Shown one piece after another: positions 1,441-35,665 of a stretch of DNA of 64,000 bases. The first letter of the stretch is position 1. Each line of letters starts with the position of its first letter. This stretch comes from Pisolithus tinctorius (taxonomy: Eukaryota; Basidiomycota; Agaricomycetes; Boletales; Pisolithaceae). Below the pieces are notes generated by a model. It worked only from the letters and a program-made list of their open reading frames with translations, was not told the DNA's origin and did not search any database. Location: positions 124,001 through 188,000 of the forward strand of contig JANFAH010000003.1 of assembly GCA_024663395.1 (NCBI GenBank). The letters run 5' to 3'. A program made the translations under genes and the position numbers.

Positions 1441-3190
1441 GAGCATCAACGCTGAAATGAATGACCAGGACACTCAATGAGGGGATGCAAGGGAAGGGGG
1501 ACTGTCGATCAACAATGACGAGTCGAAGCGCTACAAGCCGAGAGGAGGCGACAGAGGGGACTGCGACGAACCAGTCGCAAAAGGATTGAAGGGAAATGGG
1601 GCACCCAGTCCTGAGATATTCGCAATTTTGTCCACAGCTGCCTCTGACGACCAAATGGGGCATATCTCTGCAACGACAGCGCGGAATTTCACAAATGCTG
1701 TGTCAACAGGAAGGGCTCGTCGAGGGGATCATATGACCGAAAAAGCGAGGCGCGCGACGGCGAAACGGGAGAGATATGCGGGAAAGTGTTCTGGGGGAGA
1801 GGGGAGAGGGACACCATTGCGCAACAACTGTTCAGGCGATCGGCACAGAACTTCGGATGACGGTAGGCAGCTCCTAGACGAGCTGGGATAGAAATGAATC
1901 GCGTCGATCAGAACACCCTTTCTCGAGATATTCACAATGTTGTCCTCGCAGGCCACTGGACGCGAAAATGACCATATCTTGACAACGACTGCGCGGAATT
2001 TCACGAGCAAGCAGTCGCCATGAATGGTTCACAGAGGGGAGTGTACATCCGAAAAAGCGAGGGGCGCGACAGCGAAACGGGGGAGATATGCGGGAAGGTG
2101 TTCAGGGGGAGGGGGAGAGGAAGACGCTCGCATGACAACAGCTGGGGCGATCGACACGAAACAGTGGGCCCTCGTAGGGGACCTCCAGGCGAGTCTGGCA
2201 CAAAAGGAACCACGCCAATCGAAGCACCCAACCTCGAGATATTCACAAGGTTGCCTCGCAGACCTATGAATGCGAAAACAGCCATATCTCAACAACGACT
2301 GTGCAGAATGCCACAAACCAGGAGTCGACAGGAAGGGTTTGTCGAGGAGAGTGTGCGACCCAAAAAGCGAGGCACGCGATGGCGAAACGAGCAAGGCGCG
2401 CGAGGGTCTTCAAGAGTGCACCCTCCCACAACCTGCAGAATTTATCTGGAACCGCTTGGCACATCGAAGCGTTCTAGGTACCGTTGGAGAGCTCTCGTCA
2501 AACAGTACAACCGCGCGGAAAAGCGAGAGGCGCGACGGTGAAGTGAGCAAGATACACGAGGAAGTGTCTGGGGGGGGGAGGGGGAGAGGAAGACTCTCAC
2601 GCGACAACGGTTTGGGCGATCGACATGAAACCTCGGGTGCTTACAGACGGCCTGTATACGAGCCGGGAACAAAAGGAATCATGTCAATCCGACCTCCCAA
2701 TCCCGAGTTATTCGCAAAGTCGTGCCTCAGTCCTCTGAACACGAAAATGGTCCTATCTCAACAACGACTGCGCGGAACTTCATGAACAGGGAGTCAATGG
2801 GAAGGGCTCATCGAGAGGGATTAACGACCCGAAAAGCGAGAGGAGCGACGCAGAACTGCGCAGGCGACTATGGCAAGACCTCGAGGATAGACCTTTGCAC
2901 AAATATGCAAATACCTCTGGAGCTGCTGGGCATGCCAAAACATTCTTTGTATCCCTGGAAAGGTCTCATCGAGTAGTACTGGTCTGCCGAAAAGCGAGAG
3001 ACCTGGCGCAAAATCGCGCGAGTTACAGCCAGAAGACCTCATGCGCACAAAATGCGGAATTACTCTGGAACCATGGAGCGCACCGGAACATTCTTGGGTT
3101 CTCTAGGAAGCTCTTGTTGAGTAGTATGATGTTGCAGAGAAGTGAGAGGCGTGGCAGAGAGGTGAGCGAGATATGGCCTTGATGTGATGG
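1441..3190. repeat. Degenerate tandem repeat tract (about 308-bp period, half-period subrepeats)
   Basis: The motif TATCTCAACAACGACTG followed by CGGAATTTCA recurs near 1660, 1974 and 2281, and in diverged form near 2754. A second motif, AAAAGCGAGAGGCGCGAC with variants, recurs near 1740, 2050, 2360, 2520, 2835, 2993 and 3140. The period is about 308 bp with a half-period component. The tract is CpG-rich and lies between the gag gene and the 3' LTR. Overlapping ORFs on both strands look like repeat artefacts rather than genes. Confidence 0.75.
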
Positions 3191-6641: not shown

Positions 6642-8039
6642 ATGGTCGAGAATCGCCTGATCGCCGTGAGGGACGAGAACAATTTGGACGAGGAGGACGA
6701 AGATTCTGATACCTCGTCTGATATCGTTCGGAGGATGCTAGTCATGCAGCAGATTCGGAACTACGCAGTGGTCGCCGCTACACTCGGTCTATACCAGGCT
6801 GCAGTCGCAACACTTCGAAGCGCTACCCCAGAACCTTACCATATGTCTGCTCTTTCAGGACAGGGATGGGTAAATGAGTTGCTTAATGGGCACCCCAAGC
6901 GGATCAGAACTGAGCTCGGCGTCCACAAACATATCTTCCTCAGGCTGGTATCCATCCTTCGTGAAGGGGATCTCCAAGATTCAAAGAACGTCGCGTTAGA
7001 GGAGCAGCTGGCGATTTTCCTGTACGCAATGGTGACAGGCTTATCGGCTCGGCACATCGGTGAGCGATTCCAACGCTCGATGGATACAATATCACGGTGA
7101 GTGCACTGTCGTTTGAATTGAAGTTCTGCTAAACTTCACCCAGGTATTTTAAACGAATGCTCCATGCATTCTCCGAGGGTCGCATTTATACCACATATGT
7201 TCGCCTTCCCAGAGCCGATTCACCAGTCCCCAGTCGTATCGCCACCAATCCCAAATTTTATCCGTACTTCAAGGACGCTATAGGTGCCCTCGATGGTACA
7301 CACATCGCATGTGCGCCATCCGCAAGTGAACGGGACCTTATGCGCAACCGCAAGGGCTTCTTATCCCAAAACTGTCTCGTCACGTGTTCATTCGATGGTA
7401 TCATTACATACGTTCTCGGAGGTTGGGAAGGGTCGGCTGCTGATGCCACGGTTTACCACAATGCCCGATTGCGGGACTTTGCTATTCCTGATGGGCGGTA
7501 TTACCTTGCTGATGCGGGGTATCCGTCGACTCCACAGCTACTCGTACCGTACCGCGGCCAACGCTATCATCTGGCTGAGTGGGGGCGAGCCAATCTACGG
7601 TAAGTACCATTACATTTTTATGTGCGTTTGATTCTCATTCATTCCCTACAGGCCGAGGGATGGCAAAGAGCTTTTCAACCTTCGCCACGCCATGCTTCGA
7701 AACGACATCGAGCGTAACTTCGGAGTTATAAAGCGACGTTTTCGAACCCTCGTTCTCCCGCCCGAATATGACATGGCAGTCCAGTCCCGCTTGCCTGCGG
7801 CGGCGTGCTGTGTTCACAATATCATCCGCCTCCACGATCCTGACGACGTTGACATGCCAGATCCCGACGAATTCGATGAAGACAGCGGGCCACTTTTAAC
7901 ATCTGAAGAGACGGACGTCGGAAGCTTGCAAGATACTCCGTTGAACGCTGGGTCGCGTAGTCAGATGAATGCCGTGCATGACGCGATTGCAGTGCAAATG
8001 TGGGAGGATTATCGCGCTGAGCTCGCAAGAAGGGGTTGA
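6642..8039 (+). CDS. PIF/Harbinger transposase (DDE nuclease, HARBI1-like)
   Basis: Three exons, 6642-7096, 7144-7599 and 7652-8039, with introns of 47 and 52 nt (GTGAGT...CAG and GTAAGT...CAG), give 432 residues ending at TGA 8037-8039. I chose the ATG at 6642 because the upstream in-frame ATG (6525) lies inside the terminal repeat. The DDE triad is readable: D in GALDGTHIAC, D in YYLADAGYP and E in NDIERNFGVIKRRF, in the spacing of the DDE_Tnp_4/HARBI1 family. An acidic segment near the N-terminus (NNLDEEDEDSD) and an acidic C-terminal region flank the catalytic core. The protein cuts and joins transposon ends together with the Myb-like partner encoded at 8217-9785. No stop or missing catalytic residue is seen. 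Confidence 0.92.
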
Positions 8040-10806: not shown

Positions 10807-13800
10807 TTGAAAGGCTCTTCTGGTGTAGCATCAGAAAGAGGGCCTATAGTATCCCAGAAGGTAGAGGCTAAGATAGAGACTGAGAAAGTGTATGATTATG
10901 AACAAGATATGTCAATCACTTCTATCGCTGGTTTCGCTTACCTCGTCAACCGACAAAATGCTACCATCCGAACCATCCTCGACTCGGGCGCCGAAACAAA
11001 CATCATCGATCCGGCAATCATGCAAAAGTACGAGATCCCGACACGCAAAATTGCTCGCCCATGGGAGTCTAGAAGCTACAAAGGCAGGACTGGAGACTGG
11101 GTAACCCATATCGCTTCCTTCAGAGCCAAGATCTGGGGAAAGACTATGCGCATCCGCACGTACGTCCTCAAGCTCGGAAATTGGGAATCCCTCCTTCTTG
11201 GAATGCCTTGGCTTAAGGAGCACAACCCCATCATCAGCTGGACTTCGTGAAAGCTGATCGGCTGGGGGGAACTCGACCATGGCCTCGACAGGAAAAACCA
11301 CGTCCGCGGAACCGATTTCACACGAACTGTGAAGATAACCCATACCTCCATTTCCACGAAACTCGAAGCTTCTCACGTCCAAGCAGAAGTTGATTTGCCT
11401 TCGGAATATCGGGACTTCTCAGTAGTCTTCTCCGAAGAAGAAATCCCTCTTCCGCCACATTGTGGTTTCCTTGACCACGAAATATGATTGAAGCCCGGCT
11501 TCCAGCCAAAGAAAGGAGCCATCTATCCACTCTCGCTCGACGAACTCAAGGGCCTTGATGAGTTCATCGAGGAAAACCTCAAATGCAGAAAGATTCGCCC
11601 CTCGAAATCTTCGCAGGCAGCCCCTGTCTTTTTCATAGGAAAGAAAGACAGGAAAAGAAGACTCATCCAAGACTACTGGTACTTGAACTCTCACACCATT
11701 ATTGACTCCTACCCTCTCCCCGATGTCAAGACCCTGCTAGACGAACTCACCAGCTCTCGCTACTTCGCCAAGTTCGATGTCCACTGGGGTTTCACTAATA
11801 TAAGGGTAAAGGAGGGAGACAAGTGGAAAGGGGCTTTCATAACCCCTAGAGGACTCTTCGAGCCGACTGTAATGTTCTTTGGGCAGTGCAACTCGCCGCC
11901 CACCTTCCAGAGGTACATGGATCACACGTTCGGAGAACTCAAAAATGAGAGAAAGGCCGTCATCTTCATGGATGATGTCACTATACATTCAAAAACCAGA
12001 GAAGGTCTTCGCAAGGCGGTCCGCCGCTTCCTGCAAATCGCCGCAAAAGAACATCTCTGCCTGAAGTTGAAGAAGTGCACCTTCGAAGCTGAAGAAATAG
12101 ACTTCTTGGGGTTCGTGATCCATCAGGGTCAGTACGAACCGTTGGAAATTAAAATTGAAGCCATCAAAACATGGCCCGCACTGACAACTCTCAAGGAACT
12201 TCGGTCCTTCTTAGGCTTCTGCAACTTCTACCAACAGTTCATCTCCGGCTTCTCACAAACCGCCTGACCGCTGCATGACCTCTCAAAGAAAAACGCAAAA
12301 TGGACCTGGGGCCCTGAACAGAGCTCGGCCTTCGAAGATCTGAAGAAAGCCCTCTCGTCCAAGCCTGTTCTTCGTCTCCCGGACCTCTGGAAGCCTTTCG
12401 TACTCCACACCGATGCCTCGAAACTCAGCACCAGAGCGGTCCTGTCGCAAGCCGATGACTCGGGAATACTCCACCCCTGTGCGTACATGTCTCAGTCACT
12501 AACCAGGGCAGAACAGAATTACCAGGTCTATGACCTGGAAATGCTCGTGGTAATGTGCGCCCTCAAGCAATGGCGCCCTTACCTCCTGTCCCCACCGGAA
12601 CCAACTCGGGTCTACACAGACCACCAAAACATCACTTACTACGCACAGCCTCAAAAGCTTACAGCCCGACAAGCCCGCTGGCAAGCAACCCTACAGGAGT
12701 ACCCACTACAGTTCGTCCACATCGTGGGAACGAAGAATTCTGCCACCGACACTCTTTCCCGACGTTCGGACTTCAATGCCGAACCGGAGACCATCTCTAC
12801 CCTACTCCCAAAGGCCATTTGGCTTGAGGGGGGGGTGAGACCCTCTGTTGTTTCCCTTTTCAAGATCAATCAAGCCGTCTCCGAGCCTTTGGAGGCTTCA
12901 CCGAAAGTTCAGAAGGTCTCGTTCAAGGAGGAAACCCCAACCGAACGCCCGCCTGAGGACAAGCCAAAGGTTCAGAAGGGTAAAGGACATGTGTTCCAGC
13001 TGAATGCAGACCTGTATCAGGAGGTGAAAAAGGCCTCCACGTCCCTCTCCACCCTGGAAACAACTGAAGGGTCTGACGGAGTCAGGAGGAAAGGAAGGAG
13101 AATCTTCATACCGGAACCAGTTCGCCAAGACGTCCTTCGGCAGTACCACGATACCCCTGCCTTTGGGCACCCAGGAGTGAAAGCAATGACGAAGAAAATG
13201 AACAAATATGTGTGGTGGCCCAGGATGTACCAGTCAATCCGGAACTACTGCAAAGGTTGCCTGTCATGCCAGGCCAACAAGGTGAACACACATCCGACAA
13301 TGCCCCCCATCACCCCACACGACGTAGCCAAGAACCCCTTCCCCTTTAAACAGGTCTCGATGGACCTGGTCACCAACTTGCCCCTGTCCAGTGGCAAGTA
13401 CAACTCTATCCTCACCATCGTTGACCAAGGGCTTACTAAGGGTGTGTTCTTCCTACCGACTACCAAAACTGTAAACAGTGTAGGAGTGGCCGATCTCTAC
13501 CACGCCTATGTCTACCCCCATTGGGGCATGCCGGAAGCCATCATATCGGACCGCAGACCTCAGTTCGTGTCCACCTTTACTCAGGACCTTTACCGCTCCC
13601 TCGGAATCGAGTTGAAGGCCTCCACTGCGTATCATCTGCAGACCAATGGAGAGGCCAAATGTGTCAACCAGGAGGTTGGGACCTACCTCCACATGTACGC
13701 GGACACAGACCCCCACAACTGGCATACCAAACTCCCTGATGCACAAATGGCGCATAATTCGCGCGTGCATTTGTCTCACAACCAGTCGCCCTATTCGCTC

Positions 13801-14433
13801 ATGTACAGTTTCGACCCTGCTCCCTACCCTATGGGACAACCCCCTCCGGAGTTGCTAGCGGCCGACCGACTTGAGCAGCTGGCTGCCAACCGAGATGCCG
13901 CGATAATCGCTCATAAAGAAGCACAGGAAGTAATGAAGGCCCAATCAAAAGGAAGCTATACAGAGTTCTCTGTAGGAGATAAGGTTTGGCTTGATGCTTC
14001 TGACCTAAAAAGAGATGTCCCGTCGAAGAAGCTTGCACCCCGACGTCACGGCCCGTTTGTAATTTCCGAACGGATCAGCCCGGTCACCTACAAGCTGCAG
14101 TTACCCCCTAGCTGGCAGATACATCCTGTGTTCCATGCGTCAAAGCTTACTCCTTTCGTTGAAATGCGCGAATATGGCCCGGCACAACCCCCACCTCCTC
14201 CAGAATTGGTAGGAGACGAGAACGAATGGGAGGTCGAGGCCATACTCAAGCACAAACGTGTGCGCAAGGTCAAGTCATCGTCCAGAAATGCCGGTAAAAA
14301 CCCTCAGCAAAAATACCTCTACCTCATCAAATGGCTAGGATACCCGCATTCCCAGAATAGTTGGGAAAGCGAGGACAACCTTATAAATGCCCCAGAGGTT
14401 CTTGGGGAGTACAAGCGCGCCCACAGTCTCTGA
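10807..14433 (+). pseudogene. Pol of the Gypsy element: protease, RT, RNase H, integrase, chromodomain
   Basis: One plus-strand frame, -1 relative to gag, carries TGA at 11248-11250, 11485-11487 and 12265-12267. Domain order: aspartic protease (LDSGAETNIIDP, LLGMPWLKEHNPIISW); RT from about 11488 with the active-site box FMDD (IFMDDVTIHSKT); RNase H (FVLHTDASKLSTRAVLSQ, DLEMLVVM); integrase with an HHCC zinc finger (H..H..CKGCLSCQ, about 13140-13275), then D in SMDLVTNLP and D in ISDRRP; C-terminal chromodomain (EWEVEAILKHKR, YLIKWLGYPHSQNSW). The third integrase catalytic residue is lost: the family motif QTDGQTERVNQ reads QTNGEAKCVNQ here. TGA at 11485 and 12265 stands where relatives have Arg (HEIRLKPG and SQTARPL types), as CGA to TGA decay would give. 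Confidence 0.9.
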
Positions 14434-20183: not shown

Positions 20184-20349
20184 TGGTATCACACCTGATA
20201 CTCCCACTTATATAATCTAATTAGACACAACATTGCTGTTTTGATGTCAGTCTAAGATGAGGCATTTGAGGTGTTTTCCCCCTCAATGAATAATTATTGA
20301 ATACCATAGAGTACTTAAAAAGATTAAGAGCCACTAATCTACCTGAGCC

Positions 20350-20985
20350 ACACCAGGCGCACTGGGATTTGTCATCAGCGCCCCGCCGATGCTTCCCACG
20401 CATGTGACGCGTCATCCCCAACACCTCTCGTCGCCGTTGTCAACAGCGAGCTCGCATATCTCAACAACTACACAACGTACAAGCATTGGACTTTCACGGC
20501 TGTATAGTACTCATGTCTAGCTAGCATTCTGTAACATATTATTAATTACCACTAGATACTATGTACTAAGCTACCAGAGCTGTGCCGCATCGCACTAGGA
20601 TTTGTCATCAACACACCACCCGTACTTCCCACGCACGTGACGCGTCATCCCTGACACCTCTCGTCGCCGTTGCCGACAGCGAACTCGCATATCTCAACAA
20701 CTACACAATGCGCAAACATCGGACTTTCACGGCCGTATAGTACTCATGTCTAGCTAGCATTCTGTAACATATTATTAATTACCACTAGATACTAAGTACT
20801 AAGCTACCAGAGTGGTGCCGCGTCGCACTGGGCTTTGTCATCAACGCCCACCCATACTTCCCACGCACGTGACGTGTCATCCCCGACACCTCTCGTCGCC
20901 GTTGTCGACAGCAAGCTCGCATATCTCAACAACTACACAACACACAAACATCGGAATTTCACGAACATGTAGTATTCATACACAA
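20350..20985 (+). repeat. Left subterminal tandem repeats of KDZ (about 233 bp x 3)
   Basis: Units each contain TTTGTCATCA..., CTCTCGTCGCCGTTG, CTCGCATATCTCAACAACTA and CTTTCACGGCCGTATAGTA. The CTCTCGTCGCC box recurs near 20425, 20658 and 20890. Likely transposase-binding sites (inference). Confidence 0.85.
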
Positions 20986-21061
20986 CTAGTGCCCTGTCAC
21001 ATGAAATCCCATATTCTCGCCAAAGTCAACTGATGCAAGGACATTTAAGTAATTTATCTAC

Positions 21062-29455: not shown

Positions 29456-30160
29456 GGTGTGTCACCCAGTGCGATGCGGCTCTGGTAGCTTGATGCTTAG
29501 TACGTAGTATCCAGCAATAATCAATAATATGTTACAGAGCACTAGCTAGCCATGGGTACTATACGGCCGTGAAAGTTCGATGTTTGTGCGTTGTCTTGTT
29601 GTTGAGATATGTGAGCTCGCTGTCGACAACGGCGACGAGAGGGCACGTGCGTGGGAAGTACAGGTGGGCGTTGATGACAAATCCCAGTGCGATGCGGCAC
29701 GGCTCTGGTAGCTTAGTACAGCGATCATCAATAATATGTTACAGAGCACTAGCTAGACATGGGTACTATACGGCCGTGAAAGTCCGACGTTTGTGCGTTG
29801 TGTAGTTGTTGAGATATGCGAGTTCGCTGTCGGCAACGGCGACGAGAGGTGTCGGGGATGACGCGTCACGTGCGTGGGAAGTACGGGTGGTGTGTTGATG
29901 ACAAATCCTAGTGCGATGCGGCACAGCTCTGGTAGCTTAGTACATAGTATCTAGTGGTAATTAATAATATGTTACAGAATGCTAGCTAGACATGAGTACT
30001 ATACGGCCGTGAAAGTCCGATGCTTGTACGTTGTGTAGTTGTTGAGATATGCGAGCTCGCTGTCGACAACGGCGACGAGAGGTGTCGGGGATGACGCGTC
30101 ACGTGCGTGGGAAGCATCGGCGGGGCGCTGATGACAAATCCCAGTGCGCCTGGTGTGGCT
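29456..30160 (-). repeat. Right subterminal repeats of KDZ (three full units and a partial)
   Basis: Inverted relative to the left set. The reverse-complement box GGCGACGAGAGG recurs near 29631, 29840 and 30071, with a partial unit at 29456-29585. The innermost units are more diverged than the outermost. Confidence 0.85.
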
Positions 30161-30500
30161 CAGGTAGATTAGTGGCTCTTAATCTTTTTAAGTACTCTAC
30201 GGTATTCAATAATTATTCATTGAGGGGGAAAACACCTCAAATGCCTCGTCTTAGACTGACATCAAAACAGCAATGTTGTGTCTAATTAGATTATATAAGT
30301 GGGAGTATCAGGTGTGGTATCAGCATCCTTAATCTGGAGCCCTCTGGAACTGAGCTGTCTACCGAATTGCGGCGCAGGACAGTGCACAAATGACAAGCTG
30401 CCTCATGTTCCAGGGTATTTTAATTCACTCGTCGAGTCTTCCATCGCTTCCTACCTCGCCTACTACTACTGGTGTCTCCTGCGCTCATCGTCTCAGTATC

Positions 30501-33500
30501 ATGACCCGGTTCACCCAGGTGGGTGGCCTGACCTGCTGAGGTTTCCGCTGTTTACCAACCCCGCCGTGCTATTACCTTCCTACCTGCTGGCCATTTTCTC
30601 GCTCGCGCTGTTCCTCATCCACAGGCCGTGCGTGTTCACACTGTTTGAGCCTCTCGCCGGTTGCTGACGCGCGCCCTGCTATTGCCCGTGCACAGCCAGT
30701 GCGTGCTGTCACCGCTTGAGTTTCTGGTCATCTGCTGACCCTTGTCCTGCTATTGCTCACCGACAGGATGTAAGTATTCTCACAAATCTTAGCTTGTACT
30801 TGTCTGGTGACCCTTGCACTGTTATTACCCATCCACAGGGAGTATGTGTTCTCATCGTTTGAGCCTCCAGTCGCCTGTTGACCGCTGCCCCCTGTTACCC
30901 ATCGACGGACCGTGCGTCCTCTCACCATTTAAGCCTCTGGCAGTCTGCTGACCCTTGCCCTGTTCTTTCCCAGCTACAACAGTATGTGAGTGTTGTGGAG
31001 CTTTGATGCTTCCGGCCGTTCACTGACCATTGTCTTACTGTTCCCCATCCACAGCGAGTGCGTTTTGTCACCATCTGAGCCTCTAGCCGGGTAGTGACCA
31101 TTTCCCTGCTATTACCTATCTACAGGAGGTACGTGTTCTCACCTTGTGAGCCTCCCGCTGTCTGCTCACCCTTGCCCTGTATAACCCCCTCCACAGAAAG
31201 TGCGTGTTCTGAGATTCTGAGATTCTGGCAGTTTTCTGACACTTGCATTGTTATTACCCATCCACAGGTCGTGCGTGTTCTCACCGTTTGACACTTGAGC
31301 ATTCTGCTGAACCTTCCCCCTCTGTTACAAACTCACAGGAGGTGCGTACTGTCACCATTTGAGCCTCTGGCATCCGCTGACCCGTGACCTATTGTTACCC
31401 ATACACAGGATGTGCGTGTCCTCACCATTTGAATCTGTGGCAGTCTCCTGACCATTGCCTTGCTATTACCCATGTGCAGCAAGTGCGTGTTCTCACCATG
31501 TGAGGTCTTGGTCGTCGGTTGACCCTCGCCCCGCTATTACCCACCCACAGGGAGTGCGTGTTATCCTCATTTGAGGTTGTCGCAGTCCGCTGACCTTTGC
31601 ACTGCTTATCACCGATCCATAGGGAGTGCGTATTATCACCATTTGACCTGTTCTCACGGTTTGAATCTTCGGTCATCTGCTGACCCTTTCCCTGCTATTA
31701 CCCATCTACAGAATGTACGTGTTCTCACAGCTTGAGTCTTTGGTCGTCTGATGACCCTTTCCCTGCTATTAACCCATCTGCAGATGGTACATATTCTCAA
31801 CTTTTGAGTCTGTGGTCGTCTGCTGACCCTTTCTCTGCTATCTTCCATCTACAGCCCGTACGTGTTCTCAACCTTTGAGTCTCTGGTCGTCTGCTGACCC
31901 TTTCCCTGCTATTTCTCATCTACAGTCCGTATGTGTTCTCAACTTTTGAGTCTCTGGTCGTCTGTTCACCCTTTCCCTGCTATTACTCCTCTACAGTCCG
32001 TACGTGTTCCCAACTTTTGAGTCTCTGGTCGTCTGCTGACCCTTTCCTTACTATTACCCATCCACAGTACGTACGTACTCTCACCGTATGAGTCTCTGGT
32101 CGTCTGCTGACCCTTTCCCTGCTATTACACATCTACAGAATGTATGTGCTCTCACGATTTGAGTCACTGGTCGTCTGCTGACCCTTTCCCTACTATTACC
32201 CATCTACAGCCCGTACGTGTTCTCAACTTCTGAGTCTCTGGTCATCTGCCGACTCTTTCCCTACTATTACCCATCTACAGATGGTACATGTTCTCACGGT
32301 TTGAGTCTTCGGTCATCTGCTGACCCTTTCCCTGCTATTACTCATCTACAGATGGTACATGCTCTCACAGTTTGAGTCTCTGGTCGTCTGCTGACCCTTT
32401 CCCTGTTAGTACCCATCCACGGTACGTACGTGCTCTCACCATATGAGTCACCGGTCGTCTGCTGACCCTTTCCCTGCTATTACTCATATACAGGGTGTAC
32501 GTGTTCTCACCATGTGAGTCACTGGTCATCTGCTGACCCTTTCCCTGCTATTTCCCATCTACAGCCCGTACGTGTTGTCAACTTTTGACTCTCTGGCCGC
32601 CTGCTGACCCTTCCCCTATTATTACCCTTCTACAGATGGTACATGTTCTCTCAGTTTGAGTCTCTGGTCGTCTGCTGACCCTTTTCCTGCCATTACTCAT
32701 CTAAAGATGGTACGTGCTCTCACGGTTTGAGTCACTGGTCGTCTGCTGACCCTTTCCCTGCTATTACCCATCTACAGAATGTATGTGTTCTCACCATTTG
32801 AGTCACTGGTCGTCTGCTGACCCTTTCCCTACTATTACCCATCTACAGCCCGTACGTGTTCTCAACTTTTGAGTGTCTGGTCGTCTGCTGACCCTTTCCC
32901 TGCTATTACTTATTTACAGAGTGTATGTGTTCTCACCATTTGAGTCACTGGTCGTCTGCTGACCCTTTCCCTGCCATTAATAACCCGTCTACAGAGTGTA
33001 TGTGTTCTCACCATTTGAGTCATTGGTCGTCTGCTGACCCTTTCCCTGCTATTACCCATCTACAGCTGGTACATGTTCTCACGGTTTGAGTCTCTGGTCA
33101 TTTGCTGACCCTTTCCCTGCTATTACTCATTTACAGGGTGTATGTGTTCTCACCATTTGAGTCACTGGTCATCTGCTGACCCTTTCCCTGCCATTAATAA
33201 CCCATCTACAGAGTGTATGTGTCCTCACCATTTGAGTCATTGGTCGTCTGCTGACCCTTTCCCTACTATCACCCATCTACAGCTGGTACATGTTCTCACG
33301 GTTTGAGTCTCTGGTCATTTGCTGACCCTTTCCCTGCTATTACTCATTTACAGGGTGTATGTGTTCTCACCATTTGAGTCACTGGTCGTCTGCTGACCCT
33401 TTCCCTGCTATTAATAACCCATCTACAGAATGTATGTGTTCTCACCATTTGAGTCACTGGTCGTCTGCTGACCCTTTCCCTACTATTACCCATCCACAGT

Positions 33501-35665
33501 ACGTACGTGCTCTCACCATATGAGTCTCTGGTCGTCTGCCGACCCTTTCCCTGCTATTACTCATCTACAGATGGTACGTACTCTCACGGTTTGAGTCTGT
33601 GGTCGTCTGCTGACCCTTTCCCTGCTATTACCCATCTACAGAATGTATGTGTTCTCAACTTTTGAGTCTGTGGTCGTCTGCTGACCCTTTCCCTGCTATT
33701 ACCCATCTACAGGAAGTACGCGTCCTCACCATTTGAGTCTGTGGTCGTCTGCTGACCCTTTCCCTACTATTACCCATCTACAGACGGTACATGTTCTCTC
33801 GGTTTGAGTCTCTGGTCGTCTGTTGACCCTTTCCCTGCTGTTTCCCATCTACAGGCAGTACGTGTCCTCAAGGTTTGGGTTTCTGGTCGTCTGCTAACCC
33901 TTTCCCTGCTATTTCCCGTCTACAGCCCGTACGTGATCTCAACCTTTGAGTCTCTGGCCGTCTGCTGACCCTTTCCCTGCTATTTCTCATCTACAGGCCG
34001 TACGTGTTCTCAACTTTTGAGTCTCTGGTCGCCTGCTGACCCTTTCCCTGCTATTACCCATCTACAGGCAGTACGTGTCCTCAGGGTTTGAGTCTCTGGT
34101 CGTCTGCTGACTCTTTCCCTACTATTACCCATCTACAGATGGTACATGTTCTCTCGGTTTGAGTCTCTGGTCGTCTGCTGACCCTTTCCCTGCTATTATT
34201 CATCTACAGATGGTACGTGCTCTCTCTGTTTGAGTCACTGGTGGTCTGCTGACCCTTTCCCCGCTGTTACCCATCTACAGGCAGTACGTGTCCTCACGGT
34301 TTGAGTTTCTGGTCGTCTACTGACCCTTTCCCTGCTATTTCCCATCTACAGACAGTACGTGTTCTTAACTTTTGAGTCTCTAGTCGTCTGCTGACCCTTT
34401 CCCTGCTATTACTCATTTACAGGGTGTACGTGTTCTCACCATTTGAGTCACTGGTCGTCTGCTGACCCTTTCCCTACTATTACCCATCCACAGTACGTAC
34501 GTGCTCTCACGGTTTGAGTCTGTGGTCGTCTGCCGACCCTTTCCCTGCTATTACACATCTACAGAACGTATGTGTCCTCACGGTTTGAGTCACTGGTGGT
34601 CTGCTGACCCTTTCCCTACTATTACCCATCTACAGCCCGTACGTGTTCTCAACTTCCAAGTCTGTGGTCGTCTGCTGACCCTTTCCCTGCTATTACCCAT
34701 CTACAGTCAGTAGGTGTCCTCACCATTTGAGTCCCTGGTCATCTGCTGACCCTTTCCTTCCTGTTACCTATCTACAGATGGTACATGTTCTCACTGTTTG
34801 AGTCTCTGGTCGTCTGCTCACCCTTTCCCTACTATTACCCCTCTGCAGATGGTACATGTTCTCACCATTTGAGTCTCTGGTCATCTGCTGGCTGACCTTT
34901 GTTGTCCTTTTTCCCATCCACAGCAAGTATGTTGTCACCACTTGAACTTCTGGCCGTCTGCTGATCCTCCCTTCCTGCTATGACTCATACACAGGAAGTC
35001 CGTGTTCTCCGCATATAAGTCTCTGGCCCTCCGCTGACTCTTCCCCTGCTATTGCTGATCCACAGGCAGTCCGTGTTCTCGCCGTTTGTGCTTTTCGCGA
35101 TCTGCTGATCTTTGTCCTGCTATTGCCCATCCACAGTTCGTGCGTATTCTCGCCATTTGAGATTTTGACTGTCTACTGACCTTTGCCCGACTCTTACGCA
35201 TCCACAGCGTGTGCGTATTCTTTCCTTTTGGCGTTTTGGCTGTTGCTTCATCCTTGTCTTGCTGTTGCACATCCATAGGCAGTGCGTACTCTCGTCTTTT
35301 GGCCTGCCGGTCATTTGCTCATCATTAAGCTGTCCCCTTGCGTTGTGCATCCAGAGAGTGTGTGCTCTTCTCTTTCGCTTTTCACTTCACTGATACCACC
35401 AGCACTTCAGGCAATGGATGACGACTCTTCTCCATCAATGTCATCAAACTCGCCGCTCCCAAATGAGTGAGTCCAGTTGATGTCACTTCCCACGATGCTT
35501 CCTATGGTAATATATGCTATTAGCTCTGTTGCGGTTCCCCCTGCGCACTCCGAAGATCCCTCCTGCGACGACTCTGCTGATATGTCCTCCGAGGACTTGG
35601 AAGTTGCGTCCTTCGATGATCCTGATGCAGTTGCTGGGTCTTCTGCTGAGCGTAGAGCCTCCTGA
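30501..35665 (+). CDS. Candidate single-codon micro-exon gene (about 138 residues, about 70 introns)
   Basis: Model from splice signals only. A first coding exon is possible at 30501-30518 (ATG, six codons, ending CAG before GTGGGT). Then come 67 exons of exactly 3 nt between 30625 and 35357, then exons 35411-35466 and 35524-35665 (stop TGA 35663-35665). All phases are compatible: a phase-0 first exon, 3-nt exons, and a phase-0 entry to the acidic, Ser-rich tail (AMDDDSSPSMSSNSPLP; SEDPSCDDSADMSSEDLEV). None of the 67 triplets is a stop. Residues encoded by the micro-exons are mostly A, P, G, S, M, N, Y and E. I recognise no family. The first exon is the weakest part, and the gene could begin elsewhere. 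It lies just outside the right KDZ end. Confidence 0.45.
30605..35365 (+). repeat. 71-bp tandem array of intron-like units (67 copies)
   Basis: Each unit reads, in order: GTRYGT (GTATGT, GTACGT, GTGCGT, GTACAT), a body with TCACNNTTTGAGTC, the branch-point-like TGCTGAC, CCTTTCCCTGCTATTACCC, CATCTACAG, then three variable bases before the next GTRYGT. The central copies (about 31700-34870) repeat at 71 bp, some at 74 bp through an extra TAA. Units at both ends are more diverged. The spacing CAG-NNN-GT is kept in all 67 copies. The acceptor is changed in a few: CGG near 30908 and 32430, AAG near 32704, TAG near 31621 and 35279, GAG near 35353. Confidence 0.95.

What the first reader, a model, noticed from the sequence alone, without database searches (positions are those of the whole stretch)
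30605..35365. Array of 67 intron-like units separated by exactly three bases
Seen directly: in all 67 units the acceptor position (CATCTACAG or variant) is followed by three variable bases and then a GT donor (GTATGT, GTACGT, GTGCGT, GTACAT, GTCCGT). Each unit also has a TGCTGAC branch-point-like box and a pyrimidine stretch. Unit bodies, especially in the first 15 and last 7 copies, have drifted, yet the 3-base spacing never changes. If spliced, this is a gene whose exons are single codons. Micro-exon genes of schistosomes and bicycle genes of aphids have short in-phase exons, but I know of no array of one-codon exons this long.
Basis: partly seen in the sequence, partly recalled or inferred. 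Interest (0 to 1): 0.95.

Follow-up and report, generated by a model that had tools for sequence, protein, structure and literature searches.

The report
Gene with 67 consecutive one-codon exons
A mushroom-forming fungus (Pisolithus tinctorius) has a family of genes in which a stretch of protein appears to be written one codon per exon, each codon cut off from the next by a similar intron of about 68 bases, a more extreme splitting of a gene than any I found described.

Summary
Window 30519-35410 is a chain of 68 introns (mostly 68 nt; 2 of 68 end in GG, not AG) separated by 67 exons of 3 nt, between a 5' coding exon (MTRFTQ) and 3' exons ending at 35665. The genome is Pisolithus tinctorius. 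Eight further loci carry long chains (22-70 single-codon exons; two pairs are near-copies) and three carry short ones. A parser free to choose exons of 0-40 nt returned 3 nt almost throughout; reverse strands, shuffles and other window pieces did not. None of 336 triplets is a stop (9-20 expected). Triplets vary more than most intron columns; in one array identical introns carry different codons. Two loci differ by six whole units through a chimeric intron. Three long chains follow a ULD_2 module. For two short-chain ULD paralogs, homologous proteins (one from a contig too short for the unspliced gene) contain all nine residues that single-codon exons encode, four of them beside introns of the array family. 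Best reading: a real gene family with consecutive single-codon exons, spliced in phase 0, whose tandem introns recombine and so add or remove whole codons. Not shown: RNA across a long array. I found no such architecture in print.

The parts
30501..30518 (+). 5' coding exon ATGACCCGGTTCACCCAG (MTRFTQ), phase 0 at donor GTGGGT; start codon inferred
   Evidence: identical exon at paralog L039
30519..30624 (+). first intron, 106 nt, GTGGGT..CCACAG
30625..35357 (+). array: 67 exons of 3 nt (GCC ... AGA) separated by 66 introns, most of 68 nt; 67 codons, no stop
30909..30911 (+). single-codon exon ACC preceded by a GG (not AG) acceptor; would probably be skipped, in frame
32423..32425 (+). single-codon exon TAC preceded by a GG acceptor; same remark
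35358..35410 (+). last array intron, 53 nt, GTGTGT..CACTTCAG, shared with paralogs L039, L040, L041 and, by eye, L043
35411..35466 (+). 3' coding exon (AMDDDSSPSMSSNSPLPN + 2 nt)
   Evidence: same splice choice in public model P0074
35467..35523 (+). intron, 57 nt, GTGAGT..TATTAG, phase 2
35524..35665 (+). terminal coding exon, acidic, ends ..AERRAS-TGA
   Evidence: agrees with P0074

Best explanation
This is a protein-coding gene of Pisolithus tinctorius in which 67 consecutive codons are each a separate 3-nt exon, divided by tandemly repeated U2-type introns of about 68 nt. It is one of nine long arrays found in the assembly (two pairs are near-copies). Introns are probably recognised by intron definition and removed one after another, each step adding one codon to the growing exon (inferred). 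Every exon is one codon in phase 0, so skipping any number of them keeps the frame (follows from the structure). At DNA level the similar introns are the substrate for unequal crossing-over and conversion, which add or delete whole codons and homogenise introns while selection keeps the codons different (change by whole codons shown once, L040 against L041; selection inferred). The arrays probably grew by tandem duplication of intron plus codon in genes that already had a few single-codon exons; related introns and such exons survive in shorter-chain ULD_2 paralogs (inferred). The product is a low-complexity tail, often acidic or charged, attached in L043, L045 and L046 to a ULD_2 module.
For: Free-length parser gives 3-nt exons in all 9 long-array loci: 66 of 67, 21 of 24, 29 of 30, 23 of 24, 53 of 54, 69 of 70, 56 of 56, 38 of 39, 38 of 39, with clean controls. 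0 stops in 336 triplets of 7 distinct loci; 19.6 expected from composition, 9.3 from position-specific composition. In 8 of 9 intron-length classes at most 3 intron columns are more variable than a triplet column; in L045 pair differences are 0.634 per codon site against 0.077 per intron site, and all 8 pairs of identical introns carry different codons. In-frame models with a stop for WIN, L040 and L043, and for L042 with one irregular unit; start codons inferred. Spliced alignment with a flat intron cost recovers five 3-nt exons for P0014 (460/516 identical) and four for P0016 (415/426), all nine matching; P0014 comes from a 1861-bp contig although the genomic span is 2455 bp. Four of the nine (CCA and CCG in L049, CCT and AAA in L047) lie next to introns related to the array family (z 6.7-10.1). 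Public model P0002 of strain Marx 270, marked partial, ends exactly at the exon end before the array. L041 intron 6 is an exact chimera of L040 introns 6 and 12 and the six codons between are missing. Four-gamete column pairs occur in all five arrays tested.
Against: No transcript or protein covering a long array was found: of 73 homologs of the L043 product none covers more than 84% of it and none of the 19 sequences I viewed has the tail; the WIN product hit only two P. tinctorius models, which I read as running through array introns. 2 of 68 window introns lack AG. L039 has a broken donor, L045/L046 lose the pattern at the 3' end, L044 lacks a recognisable 5' exon. In L044's 68-nt class (11 units) 8-12 intron columns are more variable than the triplet columns, and in L042 close unit pairs mostly share the codon. 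P0014 and P0016 differ from the P. tinctorius genome at 11% and 3% of residues, so may come from another strain or species, and the nature of their source contigs ('lgn') is inferred from length.
Confidence: 0.8

Rival explanations
1. Combinatorial skipping: the array is spliced, but any donor may join any later acceptor, so each locus yields many in-frame peptides and the full 67-codon product is rare or only one of many.
For: All exons are one codon in phase 0 and stop-free, so every combination is in frame; donors are a few near-equal types; two acceptors are GG and would force skipping.
Against: No RNA was available. In the two short-chain paralogs the homologous proteins contain every single-codon residue (9 of 9), which shows full inclusion in those products.
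Confidence: 0.15
2. Non-coding intron satellite: a tandem repeat of dead introns inside one large intron; the codons are not used.
For: Tandem repeat character; no long-array transcript found; public models do not use the triplets (P0001, P0074, P0076).
Against: Absence of stops, codon-specific diversity and in-frame termini at several loci; nine used single-codon exons in relatives.
Confidence: 0.06
3. Unspliced or partly spliced translated repeat, as in the public models P0074, P0075 and P0076.
For: Three public models read parts of array introns as protein, by my comparison with the frames.
Against: 71 is not a multiple of 3; the longest open frame inside the five arrays examined is 155 codons; it does not explain the triplet statistics.
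Confidence: 0.02
4. As to origin: insertion of a mobile intron (introner) at every codon boundary of an older continuous coding sequence, instead of tandem duplication.
For: Identical introns with unrelated codons in L045.
Against: Chimeric intron with a six-unit deletion shows exchange between units; four-gamete mosaics; repeated multi-unit codon blocks in L043 (read by eye). Three two-unit DNA searches listed only array loci, though the lists of 16 and 17 are cut and such queries find dispersed single copies poorly.
Confidence: 0.12

Closest known systems
Schistosoma micro-exon genes (MEGs); PMC10526429, abstract and passages seen
   Same: Many short exons, mostly multiples of three; hard for automatic annotation
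   Different: There 10-20 very short exons; the abstract gives 3-81 bp, the text a minimum of 6 bp and mostly 15 bp, with introns of 0.1-5 kb. Here 67-70 consecutive exons of 3 nt and tandemly repeated introns of about 68 nt
Aphid bicycle and megacycle genes; PMC9168663, passages seen
   Same: Many small internal exons of one phase; the megacycle gene has more than 100 microexons
   Different: Bicycle exons are phase 2, about 17 per gene; megacycle encodes about 2000 residues with over 100 microexons, so exons of several residues. Here phase 0 and one residue each
Single very small exons: Arabidopsis APC11 1-nt exon (PMC4674806, abstract and opening seen); Drosophila hth 3-bp exon (PMC7392893) and Fusarium CYP621A 1-nt exon (PMC12940212), start of abstract seen; Trichoderma Xlr2 microexon (PMC11121469, start of abstract seen)
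   Same: Exons of 1-3 nt can be spliced; microexons exist in fungi
   Different: As described there, one isolated exon, not a consecutive array
Introner-like elements and tandem-duplication intron gain (PMC4457414, PMC9860276, PMC4974935; start of abstract seen)
   Same: Families of similar introns; duplication as a source of introns
   Different: Those are spread over many genes or are single events; here tandem arrays with one codon between copies

Membership tests
Spliceosomal (U2-type) introns | GT donor, branch box, AG acceptor in each unit | tested here: met
   The parser demands GT and AG (or a well-scoring GG), so those are partly by construction; the branch A, not demanded, is 97% in the 68-nt class (n=151) and 78% in the 67-nt class (n=118); exceptions 2 GG in WIN
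Spliceosomal (U2-type) introns | Removed from the mature RNA | tested here: inconclusive
   Supported for relatives L049/L047 by protein-to-genome spliced alignment; no RNA for the long arrays
Micro-exon genes (as an architecture) | Many consecutive short exons that keep the frame | tested here: met
   67 exons of 3 nt in WIN, 70 in L043, at sequence level
Schistosome MEG family | Exons 6-81 bp, mostly 15 bp, with introns 0.1-5 kb | tested here: not met
   3-nt exons, about 68-nt introns; definition from PMC10526429
Schistosome MEG family | Secreted protein | not tested
   No signal peptide prediction was run
Aphid bicycle genes | Internal exons of phase 2 | tested here: not met
   Array exons are phase 0 in the models; definition from PMC9168663
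Introner-like elements | Near-identical introns dispersed in many unrelated genes | tested here: inconclusive
   Three genome searches with two-unit queries listed only array loci; lists are cut and counts are lower bounds
ULD_2 (PF22893) protein family | Match to the Pfam profile | tested here: met
   Two joined exon pieces of L045, E 1.2e-8, 35.4 bits against cut-off 24.5. Applies to L043/L045/L046, not shown for the window gene
Non-coding satellite | No reading-frame constraint | tested here: not met
   0 stops in 336 triplets

The most novel reading that the evidence does not exclude
The arrays are a codon-by-codon diversity device: at DNA level recombination between similar introns shuffles, adds and removes single codons without breaking the frame, and at RNA level any donor-acceptor pair gives an in-frame peptide, so one locus could make very many tails for an adaptor protein.
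Probability: 0.25. Interest if true: 0.97.

Novelty: new variant of a known kind. Interest (0 to 1): 0.92.

Why it matters
It would show that a spliceosome can assemble a protein segment from dozens of consecutive single-codon exons, which bears directly on how small an exon can be, on splicing order and on intron definition. It gives a natural example of introns acting as recombination substrates that let a protein change by whole codons. It also means that gene annotation can miss such genes: four public models at these loci (P0001, P0074, P0075, P0076) stop before or read through the array. The short-chain paralogs make the splicing question testable at once with ordinary RT-PCR.

Tried and rejected
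Unspliced reading of the repeat: rejected (longest open frame 155 codons in the five arrays examined). tRNA genes and Rfam families at gathering score: none in the window. My first L043/L045 model put the last ULD intron at GTGCAT; public model P0002 and homologs place it at TG|GTAAAC..(50 nt); corrected, but the protein searched still had the old junction. I first read TATATAAGTGGGAGTATCA upstream of WIN and L044 as a shared promoter; one search shows it lies at the ends of a long inverted repeat (transposon-like), so L044 may be truncated at its 5' end, and I do not count it as complete. A search with intron read-through pieces, meant to find such arrays in other species, gave only one P. 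tinctorius model; uninformative. A start codon that is itself a micro-exon (ATG first in L040/L041) is possible but not settled. GT-starting codons are rarer than expected from positional composition (8 against 27) but valine content confounds this. Codon choice differs from normal exons of the L043 and L045 genes (GAA, CGA); I have no tested cause. Papers: in the rows listed by searches I saw no description of consecutive single-codon exons; (five phrases such as 'single-codon exon') returned 0 papers. The library lacks most subscription journals, and I saw only the top rows of the longer lists.
Full report
WHAT IS THERE. At 30625-35357 the window holds 67 triplets, each directly after an acceptor-like site and directly before a GT donor. 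The introns are mostly 68 nt: of 68 array introns 53 are 68 nt, 4 are 69, 4 are 72, 2 are 67, and one each 71, 73, 86, 106 (first) and 45 as the parser ended the last one; by the 3' exon the last one is 53 nt. I wrote a parser that demands GT and AG (or a well-scoring GG), scores donor, branch and acceptor, and lets exons be 0 to 40 nt long. It returned 68 introns here, with 66 of 67 exons of 3 nt and one of 1 nt. The odd one becomes AGA, 3 nt, if the acceptor is CATCCAG instead of CATCCAGAG (my choice). Controls were clean: reverse strands of the nine array loci gave at most 9 introns and one 3-nt exon, 45 shuffles at most 8 and one, 18 other strand-pieces of the window at most 6 and none. 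Against perfection: 2 of 68 introns end in GG.

WHERE IT IS. The genome (G000, 92.5 Mb) is Pisolithus tinctorius: public proteins P0001 and P0074 of that species list contigs of 6,547,381 and 4,449,062 bp, the lengths of C2 and C3. Long arrays lie at C3:154.6-159.4k (window), C3:298k (L039), C3:788k (L040), C33:351k (L041), C2:1.54M (L042), C2:5.98M (L043), C21:806k (L044), C114:68k (L045) and C43:210k (L046). Searches give lower bounds. Exons of 3 nt as parsed: 66/67, 21/24, 29/30, 23/24, 53/54, 69/70, 56/56, 38/39, 38/39. L045 and L046 are 99.97% identical over 10 kb and may be one locus assembled twice; L040 and L041 are 94-98% identical in the long aligned pieces.

IS IT CODING. Triplets of seven distinct loci (L041 and L046 left out as near-copies) number 336 and hold 0 stops; 19.6 are expected from base composition, 9.3 from position-specific composition. 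In the window the model reads MTRFTQ, 67 single codons, then two 3' exons to TGA at 35663-35665, 138 residues. The public model P0074 has the same C-terminal 65 residues and thus the same 3' splice choice, but its N-terminal part contains a stretch that also appears in a read-through frame of the array introns. L043 gives an in-frame protein of 377 residues (the ULD_2 part), 70 single codons and ATDARCLHECL-stop; L040 and L042 also end in frame, L042 with one irregular unit that I read as a 12-nt exon. ULD_2 was scored on joined exon pieces of L045 (E 1.2e-8). Public model P0002 of strain Marx 270, marked partial, ends at the exon end just before the array. L039 has a donor changed to ATACGT (by eye), L045/L046 lose the pattern at the 3' end, L044 has no recognisable 5' exon.

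CODONS AGAINST INTRONS. In same-length classes the three codon columns are more variable than every intron column in WIN, L040, L043 (67 nt) and L044 (67 nt); at most 3 intron columns exceed one of them in L042 (both classes), L043 (68 nt) and L045; in L044 (68 nt, 11 units) 8-12 do. In L045 the mean pair difference is 0.634 per codon site and 0.077 per intron site; among 25 pairs of units with at most one intron difference 6 share the codon and 19 do not, and all 8 pairs with identical introns differ in codon. Close pairs (at most 4 intron differences) have different codons in 74% (WIN, 31 pairs), 100% (L040, 8), 40% and 29% (L042, 15 and 7), 100% (L043, 2), 71% (L044, 7) and 80% (L045, 193). 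If units simply duplicated and drifted, codon and intron sites would differ alike; so selection on codons, or homogenisation of introns that spares codons, is needed. Both imply that the codons matter (inference).

SUPPORT FOR SINGLE-CODON EXONS FROM RELATIVES. One search found 73 homologs of the L043 product, mostly of Pisolithus and Suillus; I viewed 19, and most share an N-terminal module ending in a motif like LIRNFL.KQV. Six further ULD loci were fetched. Three have a short chain right after that motif: L047 and L048 (6 introns, four 3-nt exons and one of 9) and L049 (7 introns, five 3-nt exons and one of 36); L050, L051 and L052 gave no such chain. I aligned proteins P0014 and P0016 to the genome (L053 and L054, covering L049 and L047) with a flat cost for any GT..AG intron and no splice-site model. 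The result has five 3-nt exons for P0014 (460/516 identical) and four for P0016 (415/426), and all nine encoded residues match: L,S,E,P..,P and L,E..,P,K. P0014 stems from a 1861-bp contig, but the genomic span is 2455 bp, so it must be a spliced sequence; for P0016 (contig 2444, span 2007) this argument does not hold. Introns 11-13 of L049 and 10 and 12 of L047 are related to the array introns (z 6.7-10.1); L047 introns 8 and 11 are borderline (3.8, 4.5), the other downstream ones at most 2.5, the introns of the N-terminal part at most 1.6. Thus CCA and CCG of L049 and CCT and AAA of L047 lie next to an array-family intron. Limits: the proteins may come from another strain or species, and 'lgn' as assembled RNA is my inference.

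HOW ARRAYS CHANGE. L041 lacks six consecutive units of L040. Its intron at the joint differs from L040 intron 6 only at positions 53 and beyond, and from L040 intron 12 only at positions up to 26 (0-based): an unequal crossover inside the intron that removed exactly six codons. Of the 24 codons of L041, 23 could be paired by intron with L040 and all 23 agree; the 24th (intron of another length) has the same codon in order. Column pairs with all four gametes are 17/21, 325/528, 141/231, 216/300 and 161/325 in L045, WIN, L042, L043, L044, as expected from exchange among units.

MECHANISM (inferred; splicing principles recalled). Short fungal introns are recognised across the intron. With 3-nt exons two neighbouring introns can hardly be bound at once, so removal is probably sequential, each step adding one codon. 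Because every exon is a whole codon, skipping is harmless to the frame; the two GG acceptors would each cost one residue. The product is a tail: acidic in L042 and L043, R/E/I/L-rich in L045, M/N/P/S/G-rich in the window gene. In L043/L045 it follows ULD_2 and a CxC..CxxC stretch; in relatives other C-termini follow the same module (kinase in P0056; below-cut-off C2H2 in P0005 and HLH in P0011). Function of the tail is unknown; an interaction or activation tail is a guess.

KNOWN OR NEW. Micro-exon genes are known in schistosomes (exons mostly 15 bp) and aphids, and isolated 1-3 nt exons in plants, flies and Fusarium. In the rows listed I saw no arrays of consecutive single-codon exons or tandem intron arrays of this kind; the library is open-access only. 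I therefore file it as a new, extreme variant of micro-exon genes and not as a member of any of those families.

Noticed in passing
window 20184-21002 and 29529-30322: Long inverted repeats (819 bp at 91%) with internal 233-bp tandem repeats; they look like the ends of a 10-kb DNA transposon-like element whose right end lies about 180-190 bp upstream of the array gene's ATG. A 23-base piece of these ends (20196-20218, 30288-30310) also abuts the 5' end of array L044.
   Followed up: partly
window 11488-14433: Ty3-type LTR retrotransposon pieces with reverse transcriptase, RNase H, integrase and chromodomain ('Ty3-type' is my label).
   Followed up: partly
window 7133-7603: Open frame with a DDE_Tnp_4 transposase domain.
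   Followed up: no
L043 and L045, first 2 kb: Segmental duplication (97.5% over 1.9 kb) that includes a gene whose reading frames look, from memory, like RNA14/CstF-77, upstream of both ULD array genes.
   Followed up: no
L042 around 2944-3017 (oriented): One unit with a lost acceptor appears to give a 12-nt exon (TATCCACACCTC) in place of a single codon, still in frame.
   Followed up: partly
seven distinct arrays: Array codons prefer GAA over GAG (55:10) and CGA among arginines, unlike normal exons of the L043 and L045 genes.
   Followed up: partly
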